From assembly GCA_022821275.1 (NCBI GenBank), contig JAJEDY010000091.1:1-64000 (forward strand): a stretch of 64,000 nt of DNA, in the 5' to 3' direction. This DNA is from Candidatus Latescibacterota bacterium. Lineage in GTDB: Bacteria > Latescibacterota > UBA2968. Both the position numbers and the translations under genes were made by a program. Positions 1,391-6,594 of the stretch are shown one piece after another. The notes under the pieces are model-generated. The model saw nothing but the letters and a program-made list of their open reading frames with translations, was not told the DNA's origin and searched no databases. The first letter of the stretch is position 1; each line of letters begins with the position of its first letter.

Positions 1391-3349
1391 TCACCTCGAT
1401 CTCGACTGCAATTCCTTCTTCCCCTTTTCAACCTCTTCCACCGCCGTCATAATCCCCTCAATAAACTCATCTGCCGCATCTTCTTTCTGCTTTTGCTGCT
1501 GTTCGTAGAGCAAGCGATAGACTTCGCACTCTTCCAGCAAATCGTCGTGGAAACCCCAGCCTGCCATGCGACCATTATCCAGCACCAGAATGCGATCCGC
1601 CCGCATCGCCGTAGAAATCCGGTGCGTAATCACAAACGTCGTGCGCCCCTCCATCAAGTGATCCAACGTCTCCTGAATCTTCGCCTCTGTCTTTGCATCC
1701 AACGCCGAAGTCGTATCGTCCAAAATCAGAATACTGGGATCGGTGACAACAGCCATCGCAAAAGCCAGACGCTGCTTTTGACCGCCCGATAAATTGGTAC
1801 CCCGCTCCTCGACAGGCGCTTCGTATTTCTCTGGCAGCGTCATAATAAAATCGTGCAACTCAGCCGCCTTAGCCGCAGCCATCACCTGCTCGGGCGAAGT
1901 ACCGGCCTGACCGTAGAGAATATTATCGGCAATCGTCCCGGAAAACAGAACGGGTTCCTGGGGCACCATGCTGAGGTGCTGTCGCAGTGAAGAAATTTTG
2001 ACATCTTGTATATCGTAATCATCCAGAATAATTTTCCCCTCTGTGGGTTCATAAAGACGCATCAACAAACTAACCAGCGTACTCTTCCCCGACCCCGAAG
2101 GCCCAACCACAGCCACCGTCGTGCCCGGTCGCACGACAAACTTGAGATCTCTAAGAACGTAATCGCCCGTCTCTGTATAGCGAAACGACACATTGCGAAA
2201 TGCCACGCGCCCGCGCACTTTGTCGAGGGTCTGTGCATCTTCCCTATCCCGAATAATCACCTCCTCATCCAGCACCTCAAACACGCGACTGATCACCACC
2301 AGCATCTGTTGCAATGTCGCATTCACATTGGCAAGTGCGACCAGTGGCGAAAAGAGATTCCCCATCGACATAGAAAAATAAACCAATTCTCCAACCGTCA
2401 TCATACCGCCGCGAACCTGCAACGCGCCAAAATAAAAGATCAGACCCATTGCAACCCCCCCCACAACCGAACAGACTGACCCCAGGCCAGAACTCAAAAC
2501 AGACTGTTTGACGCCCAAACGATACAACCCGATCAGACGCTTGAAAAAGTCCCGAAACTCCCGTCTTTCTCGCGCATAAGACAGAATGAGGCGAATCCCC
2601 TTAGAGCGTTCTTCCAGCAGTGCAGAAACCTCGGCATAATCCTCTCGAAACCGCATAAAAACATTTGCTATTGGACGCTGAAACACCTTATAGGTCACGA
2701 CATACGCGGGCAATGCAACAAAAGCCATCAGCGCGAGCTCCACATCTATCGTAAACAGAATCGCCGTCCCCATCAAAATGCGCGCAACATGCCGTAGTGT
2801 CTCTATAAATGTCGTCGTAATCTCACTCTGCAACAACCCCACATCATCCACAATCCGCGCCATAATCCGTCCGGTTTGCTGGCGATCAAAAAACGTCATC
2901 TGCAACTGCTGTACCTTCTCGTGCAGAGCCAGGCGAATGCGGAAAACAATCCGCTGCCCCACATAGGCAATACTATAGGTATAAAACCAGTTGAGCGTGG
3001 CAAAAAACGATCTCACGACCAGGTAGAGAATAAAAATCCACCCCAACCATTCCAGTTTTTCCGTACGCGTCTTGGGCAGCATTATCCCGCCTTCTTTGCC
3101 CAGCCCCGGAATCGTTGCCTGTGGATCTCGCTTTGGGCGTCTCTCCTCTTGAATCAAAGACTGCATGTGGGCTTCTGAAACGACTTCACCTGCGGGTTTG
3201 AGTTGCAAAACCTCGTCAACCGTGATTTTTGAAATAAACCCGAGTAAAAACGTATAGGACGACGTAATAGTGGCCATCATAATGACCATTAACATACGCC
3301 CCCAATACGGCTTGATATACAAAATGGTAAATCGCTTTAAGTTTTCCAT
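1391..3349 (-). CDS. ABC exporter subunit with degenerate Walker B (heterodimer partner 1)
   Basis: Fused membrane domain and ATPase of 652 aa, type IV exporter fold (MsbA/BmrA-like). An N-terminal six-helix domain with an extra hydrophilic insert at about 45-85 is followed by an ATPase with Walker A GPSGSGKST (about residue 415) and a canonical signature LSGGQ (about 520). The Walker B reads LILDDTTSALD, so the catalytic Glu is Asp. The gene starts 4 bases after the stop of the partner exporter gene, which has the reverse pattern (normal DE, altered signature). This is how heterodimeric exporters such as BmrCD or TM287/288 build one degenerate and one active ATP site. Substrate (lipid, drug or peptide) cannot be inferred. 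The C-terminus is charged and Lys-rich. Confidence 0.93.
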   Translation of the reverse strand: MENLKRFTILYIKPYWGRMLMVIMMATITSSYTFLLGFISKITVDEVLQLKPAGEVVSEAHMQSLIQEERRPKRDPQATIPGLGKEGGIMLPKTRTEKLEWLGWIFILYLVVRSFFATLNWFYTYSIAYVGQRIVFRIRLALHEKVQQLQMTFFDRQQTGRIMARIVDDVGLLQSEITTTFIETLRHVARILMGTAILFTIDVELALMAFVALPAYVVTYKVFQRPIANVFMRFREDYAEVSALLEERSKGIRLILSYARERREFRDFFKRLIGLYRLGVKQSVLSSGLGSVCSVVGGVAMGLIFYFGALQVRGGMMTVGELVYFSMSMGNLFSPLVALANVNATLQQMLVVISRVFEVLDEEVIIRDREDAQTLDKVRGRVAFRNVSFRYTETGDYVLRDLKFVVRPGTTVAVVGPSGSGKSTLVSLLMRLYEPTEGKIILDDYDIQDVKISSLRQHLSMVPQEPVLFSGTIADNILYGQAGTSPEQVMAAAKAAELHDFIMTLPEKYEAPVEERGTNLSGGQKQRLAFAMAVVTDPSILILDDTTSALDAKTEAKIQETLDHLMEGRTTFVITHRISTAMRADRILVLDNGRMAGWGFHDDLLEECEVYRLLYEQQQKQKEDAADEFIEGIMTAVEEVEKGKKELQSRSR

Positions 3350-3353
3350 AACC

Positions 3354-5129
3354 TCAACTCGCCATAGCCTCTACAGCCTCTTCAATAGAACCCGCAGCCT
3401 GCTGCTCGTAAAGCTGGCGATACCTTCCTTCGGGTATTTGCAACAATTCGCTGTGCGTCCCCTGTTCAACAATCTCGCCGTGATCCATCACAACAATAAT
3501 ATCCGCGTTGACGATCGTCGATAATCGATGTGCAATAGCAAAGGATGTGCGCCCCTTTAACACTCTGGTCATCGCCTTTTGTATCAGTGCCTCCGACAGG
3601 GAATCGAGCGACGAAGTCGCTTCATCGAGAATTAAAACCGCCGGATTGGTCAACACGGCTCTCGCGATGGCGAGACGCTGTTTCTCTCCCACAGACAGCT
3701 TGATGCCATCTTTTCCCAACATCGAATCGTAGCCCTCGGACGTACGCATAATAAATTCGTGAATCTCGGCAATGCGCGCCGCCTCGATCAACTCTGCCTC
3801 TGTGGCATCTGCCCGCCCATACAGCAAATTCTCCCGGATCGTCCCATCAAACATCACCGAATCTTGCAACACCTGTCCAATTTGCGTGCGCAAGGTCCGC
3901 AACTTAACATCTCGCAAATCGTGACCATCAATTGTAATACGCCCTTCCTTCACATCGTAAAAGCGCATCAACAAACTCGTCAACGTCGTCTTGCCGCATC
4001 CCGTATGTCCCACCAGTGCAACCATCTGTCCCGGCTGCACCTCGAGGTTGATACCCTTCAAAACCGGCTCATCTTCTTTGTACTCAAAATGCACATCTTC
4101 AAATTTAATATGCCCTTTTATCGGCGGCAATGCGACAGCATCTTCCTTGTCCGCAATCTCTATGGGAAAATCTAAAATTTCCAAAACGCGATCCACAGAT
4201 ACCATCACGGATTGAAGATGCATGGCAATTTGAGTGAGATTGAGAATAGGCTGAAACATTCGGCTCGAATAAGAAAAAAAGGCCATCACAGCCCCATAAG
4301 TCATTTCCCCCTCAATCACGTAATAACAGCCCAAACAAAAAATCACCGTATTGCGCAATCCCGACACCCCCCAGGACCCCGCCATATAGCCAGCGCGATT
4401 TGTGGCAGTCTGCATCGCCGCGTCCAAACTCTGGTGCGTATCCTCTGCAAATGCGCGGTGTTCTCTGCGTTCTCGTCCATAAGATTTCACCAGTTGCACC
4501 CCGGCCAACCGCTCTTGTAGTCCAACCGACACCTGATCCATTTTTCTGCGCCAGAGACTGTACGACTCTCGCATTGGCGTGCGCCACCCATAATAATTGA
4601 AAAAATACAGGGGCATCAGCAAAAGCAGCAAACACCCCATCTTCCAATTCAACCCCATGCACAGCGCAAGCGCCACCCAGAACGACACAAAATCAACGAG
4701 AATGCCCAGCATGCGCGACGTCACCATACTGCGCACACTCGCAATATCAGACATAATGCGCGACATAATCTTGCCCGTACCCATCTCGTCGTAAAAGCGC
4801 ATGGGCAATTTCAACATGTATTCATACGTGAACCTCCGCATACTCGTCGTTATCCCCCACCCCACATACGCATTGGTGAATGAGACCCAAACGCGCATCG
4901 CAGCGGACGTGATAGGCAGGCAAATCGAAATAAACAGAAGCACTTCCAGCAAGTGCCAATTGCCCATGGTAATGACATCATCGATGATAAACTTCATCAC
5001 CAGCGGGGGCAGCATGCTCAGTGCCGTCATCGTCGCTGTCAGACAAAACAGCAAGATCAGGCGCGATTTAAAAGGCGTAACAAAATGCGCGAGCTTGCGC
5101 AGCTTGTCGGTATTGCTCTCGTCTGCCAT
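3354..5129 (-). CDS. ABC exporter subunit with altered signature motif (heterodimer partner 2)
   Basis: Membrane domain plus ATPase, 591 aa. Walker A GHTGCGKTT lies near residue 375 and Walker B LILDEATSSLD near 497 with the catalytic Glu present. The signature is LSVGEKQR instead of LSGGQ. In a heterodimer this altered signature would face the Walker A/B of the downstream partner, whose catalytic Glu is Asp, giving one inactive site. It is the first gene of a two-gene operon; the second begins 4 bases after its stop. A sigma70-like promoter lies about 105 bases upstream on the minus strand. It is divergent from the RNase HII-YraN gene. The substrate is unknown. Confidence 0.94.
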   Translation of the reverse strand: MADESNTDKLRKLAHFVTPFKSRLILLFCLTATMTALSMLPPLVMKFIIDDVITMGNWHLLEVLLFISICLPITSAAMRVWVSFTNAYVGWGITTSMRRFTYEYMLKLPMRFYDEMGTGKIMSRIMSDIASVRSMVTSRMLGILVDFVSFWVALALCMGLNWKMGCLLLLLMPLYFFNYYGWRTPMRESYSLWRRKMDQVSVGLQERLAGVQLVKSYGRERREHRAFAEDTHQSLDAAMQTATNRAGYMAGSWGVSGLRNTVIFCLGCYYVIEGEMTYGAVMAFFSYSSRMFQPILNLTQIAMHLQSVMVSVDRVLEILDFPIEIADKEDAVALPPIKGHIKFEDVHFEYKEDEPVLKGINLEVQPGQMVALVGHTGCGKTTLTSLLMRFYDVKEGRITIDGHDLRDVKLRTLRTQIGQVLQDSVMFDGTIRENLLYGRADATEAELIEAARIAEIHEFIMRTSEGYDSMLGKDGIKLSVGEKQRLAIARAVLTNPAVLILDEATSSLDSLSEALIQKAMTRVLKGRTSFAIAHRLSTIVNADIIVVMDHGEIVEQGTHSELLQIPEGRYRQLYEQQAAGSIEEAVEAMAS

Positions 5130-5310: not shown

Positions 5311-6594
5311 ATGAAAAATATCTCAACAATGACCATCGCGCAAATTCGCGCCCACATCAAATCTGTCAATCGCCCTGATGAGGCAGACCTCCACGCACTC
5401 GAACAAGACCCTCGCGCCGGTGTTCGCGCAATCGCAGAACAGGTGAGGAAAAAGCAAAAGGCACAAGTCCGTGAGAACGCACGCCTCGAACAAATGCTCA
5501 CCATAGAAAAAAAACTCAGAGAACGGGGCATCCAGCACATCGCAGGCGTAGATGAAGCCGGGCGAGGTCCTCTCGCGGGTCCGGTTGTCGCCGCGGCGGT
5601 TATCCTCCCGGCAGATACAATCATCCCCGGCTTGAACGACTCCAAAGCACTATCCGAAAAACGCAGAGCAGAACTTTTTGAAACCATCCACAATACAGCC
5701 CTCGCCATTAGCGTGGGCAAAGCGTCTCCACAAGAAATAGACAAATACAACATCCGCAACGCCACTCACCAGGCCATGTGCGAGGCACTCGCCGCCCTCA
5801 GCATCTCACCCAACCGCGTGCTCATCGATGGCAATGCCCTCCCCGACAGTCCTTTCCCCGAGCAATCAGTCATAGGTGGTGACCGGAAGTCTCTTTCCAT
5901 CGCCGCAGCATCTGTCATCGCCAAAGTAACGCGCGACCGCCTGATGATCAATTACCACGCGCAATACCCCGCTTATGGCTTTGCCCATCACAAGGGATAT
6001 GGCAGCGCCGAACACCTCGCCGCCCTGGAAAAACACGGCCCCTGCCCCATCCACCGCCGGTCTTTCCGAGGTGTCTTTGAAGCCAGGTGCTCTGAGGACT
6101 TTAAAATTTTTGCCGAAGGCATTCAAACCGCCACAAACCTCGACCAACTTCAAGCCATAGGAAATACCATTGCCAGTGCCAGCAAACATATCCCACAGGA
6201 TGAGGTCCAGGCCCTGCGCCTGCTATTTCGCAAACAACGCACTCGCCTGCAACAATCCGGTCCCAAAGGCGAACAATTGGCAGAAAAATTTATAGAACAA
6301 AAAGGATATAGCATTCGCACACGCGGATTTCGCGCCCTGGGCGGTGAAATCGACCTCATTGCGGTGAAAAACGACGTTCTGATCTTCGTCGAAGTCAAAA
6401 CCGCGACCACCCCACATTTTGGACAGCCAGAAGCATGGGTAACGCCTGCCAAACAAGCGCAAATCATCAAAGTCGCAAAAGCCTACCTGCGACAACACCC
6501 CGACCACGCGGCACCGCGATTTGATGTCATCGCCATTGACCTGACACAATCGCGCCCTGCCATCCGCCACTACGAAAATGCTTTTACGGCTTAG
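5311..6594 (+). CDS. rnhB: Ribonuclease HII fused to a YraN/UPF0102 nuclease-like domain
   Basis: 427 aa with two recognisable parts. Residues about 75-262 are RNase HII, which removes RNA from RNA-DNA hybrids: GVDEAGRG at 79-86 supplies Asp and Glu, followed by NDSKALSE, DGNALP and HHKGYG. Residues about 305-427 match YraN/UPF0102, a restriction-endonuclease-like fold, with GEIDLI and a VEVKTA motif forming the D...E-K site. The two genes are often adjacent in bacteria; here they share one reading frame with a linker of about 40 residues. The N-terminal 70 residues resemble the extension of Firmicute-type RNase HII. An alternative start lies at Met7 (5329). No strong Shine-Dalgarno is seen for either. 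Divergent from the ABC exporter. Confidence 0.92.
   Translation: MKNISTMTIAQIRAHIKSVNRPDEADLHALEQDPRAGVRAIAEQVRKKQKAQVRENARLEQMLTIEKKLRERGIQHIAGVDEAGRGPLAGPVVAAAVILPADTIIPGLNDSKALSEKRRAELFETIHNTALAISVGKASPQEIDKYNIRNATHQAMCEALAALSISPNRVLIDGNALPDSPFPEQSVIGGDRKSLSIAAASVIAKVTRDRLMINYHAQYPAYGFAHHKGYGSAEHLAALEKHGPCPIHRRSFRGVFEARCSEDFKIFAEGIQTATNLDQLQAIGNTIASASKHIPQDEVQALRLLFRKQRTRLQQSGPKGEQLAEKFIEQKGYSIRTRGFRALGGEIDLIAVKNDVLIFVEVKTATTPHFGQPEAWVTPAKQAQIIKVAKAYLRQHPDHAAPRFDVIAIDLTQSRPAIRHYENAFTA

What the first reader, a model, noticed from the sequence alone, without database searches (positions are those of the whole stretch)
5311..6594. RNase HII and YraN fused in one reading frame
rnhB and yraN are frequent neighbours; here one 427-aa frame carries both, with catalytic residues of each domain present. 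A physical link suggests YraN acts on the same nucleic-acid intermediates as RNase HII and may help define the unknown YraN role.
Basis: partly seen in the sequence, partly recalled or inferred. Interest (0 to 1): 0.5.

Follow-up and report, generated by a model that had tools for sequence, protein, structure and literature searches.

The report
RNase HII and YraN fused protein
One bacterial gene makes a single protein from two usually separate DNA-maintenance nucleases, and the same fusion recurs across groups of related bacteria, so it is real and old, but it is a variation on known parts whose joint job is untested.

Summary
One 427-aa frame (5311-6594) carries a long-form RNase HII, a 58-aa helical linker and a YraN/UPF0102 PD-(D/E)XK domain, both active sites intact, the genome's only copy of each. 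It is no assembly error: 43 of 47 genomes of its class (a Latescibacterota lineage) have one frame across both domains, four of them single-contig, and none has two separate genes. The fusion recurs in the phylum of a Neomarinimicrobiota genome (98 of 109 genomes with a match) and in a third small lineage, with other linkers; one origin for the first two is weakly rejected (p 0.027). Elsewhere the genes are often adjacent, sometimes one in-frame stop apart, so fusion is easy. A shared substrate is plausible but unproven. YraN's role is not wholly unknown: a 2024 preprint (title seen only) calls it a helicase-associated nuclease of transformation. Here fused YraN persists in ten genomes without detectable ComM helicase, four of them at least 91% complete, hinting at a ComM-independent role. 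Reading: a bifunctional nuclease, a new variant of a known kind.

The parts
5311..6594 (+). rnhB-yraN fusion gene, 427 aa plus stop
   Evidence: conserved in relatives
5311..5532 (+). residues 1-74, N-terminal helical extension of long-form RNase HII (as in the S. aureus enzyme 5y9p)
   Evidence: NF000594 covers 7-255; 5y9p_A matched at query 5-255; helices in the model
5533..6078 (+). residues 75-256, RNase HII catalytic domain; D81 5551-5553, E82 5554-5556, D173 5827-5829, D209 5935-5937
   Evidence: Pfam E 3.8e-44; invariant residues; Z 28.2 to 5y9p
6079..6252 (+). residues 257-314, helical linker with no Pfam match; its last predicted helix (296-330) runs on into YraN
   Evidence: 0 families; H262-272, H277-293, H296-330, block pLDDT 80-92
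6253..6591 (+). residues 315-427, YraN/UPF0102 PD-(D/E)XK domain; E346 6346-6348, D348 6352-6354, E361 6391-6393, K363 6397-6399
   Evidence: Pfam E 3.2e-24; 3fov E 9.4e-15, Z 17.0; invariant residues

Best explanation
It is a genuine bifunctional nuclease. The RNase HII part nicks DNA at embedded ribonucleotides and cuts RNA in RNA-DNA hybrids; the YraN part is a Holliday-junction-resolvase-like PD-(D/E)XK nuclease that cuts branched or flapped DNA. A helical linker holds them at a 1:1 ratio on one chain, so the second cutter is delivered wherever RNase HII is recruited. It arose from the common rnhB-yraN gene pair, most simply by loss of the stop codon between them, and probably at least twice. 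Shown here: one intact frame, both folds predicted with high confidence, both active sites conserved, purifying selection on every segment, conservation across a class. Inferred: that both sites are active in the fused protein, the substrates, and any hand-over between the two sites.
For: Domains and residues. Single-copy in the genome. 43 of 47 class genomes fused in one open frame; of the other four, two have a broken frame (G053, G054), one is split by contig ends (G040) and one has no match (G044). Pairwise dN/dS 0.05-0.29 in all four segments against 8 of 10 same-genus genomes. AlphaFold2 mean pLDDT 93.5, pTM 0.74; VIA-align Z 28.2 to RNase HII 5y9p, 17.0 to YraN 3fov, 9.4 to archaeal Hjc 1gef. 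The same fusion with other linkers in two further lineages; AU test against one clade of the two main fused groups p 0.027. Adjacent unfused pairs in 40 of 80 named loci, 15 of those in the same frame with one stop between.
Against: No activity was measured, and one expressed UPF0102 protein in print showed no detectable activity (PMC10140301, passages). Linker length and sequence vary, so no fixed domain geometry is conserved. Fusion of neighbouring genes can be nearly neutral. Unfused pairs, or pieces of them, are in other families of the same phylum (9 of 17 genomes outside the class). The linker and contacts between domains rest on a model whose linker had almost no alignment depth.
Confidence: 0.65

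Rival explanations
1. Neutral fusion (compatible with two active sites on one chain): the two enzymes keep separate jobs, and the tether only fixes their ratio. It formed because the genes were adjacent and was rarely reversed.
For: Adjacency is common and 15 of 40 adjacent pairs need only loss of one stop; linkers range from 11 to 63 aa in the phylum; two f10 genomes have a related linker on rnhB with yraN as a separate overlapping gene, so fused and split states may interconvert.
Against: No genome of the class with two separate genes (47 searched); repeated, probably independent fusions kept across a class and a phylum; the linker itself has dN/dS 0.18-0.26.
Confidence: 0.45
2. A transformation protein: the fusion supplies YraN to the ComM helicase for long recombination tracts, and RNase HII is carried along.
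For: YraN cited as a helicase-associated nuclease of transformation (PMC12455585, passages); own genome has ComM, DprA and ComEC.
Against: 10 of 45 fused genomes show no ComM by profile or protein search; four of these are at least 91% complete and one, G038, is a single contig. In G027, G028 and G019 DprA and ComEC also look broken or are not found while the YraN D-ExK residues stay (in G019 the middle residue of ExK is unread). comM was found in the locus of 3 of 53 named loci with yraN.
Confidence: 0.2
3. Assembly or frame error joining two genes.
For: Frame-broken copies exist in three draft genomes (G002, G053, G054).
Against: Fused in four single-contig genomes and in 45 of 64 assemblies of the phylum, and in two further lineages.
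Confidence: 0.01

Closest known systems
Bacterial RNase HII, long form (S. aureus 5y9p; T. maritima 3o3f; E. coli 7uwe)
   Same: Fold, N-terminal extension as in 5y9p, DE-D-D residues and GRG motif
   Different: Carries a 58-aa helical linker and a second nuclease domain at its C terminus
YraN/UPF0102 (R. palustris RPA0323, 3fov)
   Same: PD-(D/E)XK fold, E-x-D...ExK residues
   Different: 3fov is a free protein of 134 residues; here YraN is the C-terminal domain of RNase HII
Archaeal Hjc Holliday junction resolvase (1gef, 1ob9)
   Same: Core fold of the YraN half, Z 9.4 for both
   Different: Sequence identity 17% and 13%; junction resolution not shown for YraN here
RNase HII-YraN fusions of the Neomarinimicrobiota phylum (L158 and relatives)
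   Same: Same domain order; sole YraN match in the genome of L158
   Different: 13-aa linker in L158 and L200-L209; L158 starts at the catalytic domain, without the long N-terminal extension; probably a separate origin

Membership tests
RNase HII (type 2 RNase H) | Profile match over the curated cut-off | tested here: met
   PF01351 151.4 bits, cut-off 25.8; NF000594 321.3 bits, cut-off 243
RNase HII (type 2 RNase H) | Four catalytic acidic residues and the GRG motif | tested here: met
   D81, E82, D173, D209, G84-R85-G86 invariant in 27 fused proteins; the role of each residue is recalled knowledge
RNase HII (type 2 RNase H) | Cleavage at single ribonucleotides in DNA | not testable with these tools
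   Needs an enzyme assay
YraN/UPF0102 | Profile match over the curated cut-off | tested here: met
   PF02021 85.5 bits, cut-off 23.6
YraN/UPF0102 | PD-(D/E)XK residues (D then E-x-K) | tested here: met
   E346, D348, E361, K363 invariant in 27; motif ID-EVK described in PMC1189080 (passages)
YraN/UPF0102 | Fold of the solved member | tested here: met
   3fov Z 17.0, rmsd 1.5, 98 aligned
ComM-partner YraN of natural transformation | ComM helicase present in the genome | tested here: inconclusive
   Present in the window's genome; not found in 10 of 45 fused genomes by profile and protein search
ComM-partner YraN of natural transformation | Physical or functional interaction with ComM | not testable with these tools
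   Needs an experiment

The most novel reading that the evidence does not exclude
YraN has a housekeeping role outside transformation, in ribonucleotide excision or R-loop and flap repair, and these fusions are the enzyme in which RNase HII nicks first and YraN then trims or cuts the branched product on the same chain. More than one phylum reached this arrangement independently.
Probability: 0.25. Interest if true: 0.65.

Novelty: new variant of a known kind. Interest (0 to 1): 0.36.

Why it matters
YraN is widespread and little studied. A natural tether to RNase HII, kept across a class and again in another phylum, gives a concrete protein in which the two activities can be tested together. 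Its survival in genomes without detectable ComM makes a second role of YraN directly testable.

Tried and rejected
Assembly error: rejected by single-contig relatives. Loss of nuclease residues: rejected. One shared origin of the Latescibacterota and Neomarinimicrobiota fusions: weakly rejected (p 0.027; quick tree, and the grouping was chosen after the trees were seen). Fused Latescibacterota alone as one clade is not rejected (p 0.33), nor with f10 and G002 added (p 0.39). An rnhB-yraN-comM-dprA cluster, expected from memory: comM in 3 of 53 loci, dprA in 0 of 53 (the profiles were built from proteins of this phylum and used at strict cut-offs, and 9 of the 53 loci had under 2.5 kb after yraN, so both can be under-counted). 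A known family for the linker: no Pfam match and no hit up to E 10 of a linker profile in the ORFs of L106-L185 and L200-L212. A paper on this fusion: none in the library by YraN + RNase HII, ribonuclease HII + UPF0102 or COG0792 + COG0164; rnhB + yraN gave one paper, whose passage lists both genes in a table; one search showed 20 of 95 papers, none with a title on it; YraN + nuclease gave six, of which passages of three were read. UniProt and InterPro could not be searched; fused entries may be annotated there.

Full report
What is there. The frame at 5311-6594 encodes 427 aa. Pfam gives RNase_HII at residues 78-253 and UPF0102 at 320-409. The NCBIfam model for the long-form enzyme covers 7-255, so the first 74 residues are the known N-terminal extension of long-form RNase HII, not something new. 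Between the domains lie about 58 residues with no Pfam match. Upstream are two ABC-transporter genes on the other strand; downstream are the histidyl- and aspartyl-tRNA synthetase genes. The genome has one RNase HII match and one YraN match, both here.

Where it comes from. The window's genome (5.66 Mb, 101 contigs, 97.5% complete) is in the same class as G060. A stretch of G060 is identical to part of DPVW01000224.1, titled Candidatus Latescibacterota bacterium UBA8231. The window is therefore in a Latescibacterota lineage, by inference.

Conservation in the phylum. Of 64 genomes searched, 45 have both domains in one open frame; all 45 were fetched and checked (48 loci there, three of them second copies of the same gene; one, G062, is cut by a contig end inside YraN). 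Three have a broken frame (G002, G053, G054). One is split over two contig ends (G040). One, G009, has the linker but its contig ends about 170 bases later and no YraN was found. Nine have two separate adjacent genes or pieces of them (G004, G005, G010, G012-G017). Two have only RNase HII or a fragment (G003, G011). Three have no match (G001, G007, G044). In the window's class (47 genomes): 43 fused, 2 broken, 1 split by contig ends, 1 without match, none with separate genes. G037, G038, G049 and G050 are single contigs and fused.

Active sites and selection. In 27 of the 45 fused proteins D81, E82, D173, D209 and G84-R85-G86 are invariant, as are E346, D348, E361 and K363. D173 lies in the segment that aligns with the D107 region of T. 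maritima RNase H2, the residue mutated in 3o3f. The YraN motif ID-EVK agrees with the description in PMC1189080 (passages read). Pairwise dN/dS against 8 of the 10 same-genus genomes is 0.11-0.20 in RNase HII, 0.05-0.23 in YraN, 0.18-0.26 in the linker and 0.12-0.29 in the N-terminal part.

Structure. The model (41 sequences) has mean pLDDT 93.5 and pTM 0.74. The linker is predicted as helices 262-272, 277-293 and 296-330, the last continuous with the first YraN helix. VIA-align gives 5y9p Z 28.2 (rmsd 1.7, 211 aligned), 3fov Z 17.0 (1.5, 98), 1gef Z 9.4 (2.5, 93). The linker had almost no alignment depth and no inter-domain error was reported, so the relative placement of the domains is not established.

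The linker. A profile of the 20 long linkers out of 27 finds the same element at the C terminus of the RNase HII of two f10 genomes (E 5.1e-8 and 2.5e-6), in G009, and in G002, G053, G054 and G040, but not, up to E 10, in L106-L185 and L200-L212. In the f10 pair yraN appears to start inside the rnhB stop (GTGA in L071, ATGA in L072). So either the tail came before the fusion or these are re-split fusions; the tree does not decide. Some lineages have a linker of only 11-17 or 36 aa.

Other lineages. Of 80 named loci (582 confirmed relatives, best 80 kept, so biased to similar sequences), 4 are fused (L107, L112, L141, L158), 40 have yraN within 700 bases, 9 have it 1.8-2.8 kb away, and in 27 no yraN was found in the stretch held. 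L141 is cut by its contig end late in YraN. In 15 of the 40 adjacent pairs the two lie in one frame with a single stop between. The fused YraN is the only match in each of those four genomes. In the phylum of L158 (titled Neomarinimicrobiota; L112's genome falls in the same group), 120 genomes were searched and 109 had a match (counted by hand from its rows). 98 have a match reaching into YraN in one frame; in 12 of these it stops about halfway through YraN, and only the ten fetched (L200-L209) were checked as fused. Seven have RNase HII with no YraN match (two of them with a stop in the match), four have fragments or one domain only. Of the seven, five are of 0.8-1.0 Mb, the others of 1.8 and 2.1 Mb, so YraN seems to be the part lost in small genomes; incomplete drafts are not excluded. 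In L141's small phylum 2 of 3 genomes are fused and the third shows only a fragment of RNase HII.

How many origins. The single-domain trees are poorly resolved. On joined domains the AU test rejects one clade of Latescibacterota plus Neomarinimicrobiota fusions at p 0.027, with the group named after the first trees were seen. With different linkers this favours two or more fusions, but it is weak evidence.

Function. YraN is cited as a 'helicase-associated nuclease' beside the helicase ComM in transformation (PMC12455585, two passages; the preprint of Hardy et al. 2024 is seen here by its title only, and is not held). The window's genome has ComM, DprA and ComEC on other contigs. But of the 45 fused genomes, 13 lack an over-cut-off ComM; three of these (G041, G058, G059) have fragments, and 10 (G006, G019, G026, G027, G028, G038, G048, G051, G057, G063) show no match better than E 1e-5 with a ComM protein from a genome of the window's genus (profile result, where not all candidates were scored). 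Four of the 10 are at least 91% complete, and G038 is one contig at 99%. In G027, G028 and G019 DprA and ComEC also look broken or are not found, yet their YraN motifs are kept (the middle residue of ExK is unread in G019). This is against a role only in ComM-dependent transformation, though most are drafts, with contamination of 4-9% in these four. One UPF0102 protein tested in print had no detected activity (PMC10140301, passages).

Verdict. The fusion is a conserved, recurring arrangement of two known nucleases. I found no description in the open-access library; databases of domain architectures could not be searched. A specialist would find it useful rather than startling; its value is as a test case for YraN.

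Noticed in passing
G038 (L013); A single-contig same-genus genome keeps the fusion but shows no ComM, and its DprA match contains a stop codon.
   Followed up: partly
G053 (L081) and G054 (L082): Two of five genomes of genus g13 have a broken frame within the YraN half; assembly error or decay could not be told apart.
   Followed up: partly
G073, G095, G153, G165, G169: Small genomes (0.8-1.0 Mb) of the second phylum show RNase HII without a YraN match and may have lost the YraN half.
   Followed up: no
L071:1500-1530 and L072 (f10 genomes): RNase HII carries the linker as a C-terminal tail and yraN appears to start inside its stop codon (GTGA/ATGA), a split version of the fusion.
   Followed up: partly
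G066, G186 (L141, L211): A third lineage with the fusion, 10-aa linker, in a phylum with three held genomes.
   Followed up: partly
window 1391-5129: Two adjacent ABC transporter genes (membrane plus ATPase domains) on the minus strand just upstream of the fusion.
   Followed up: no
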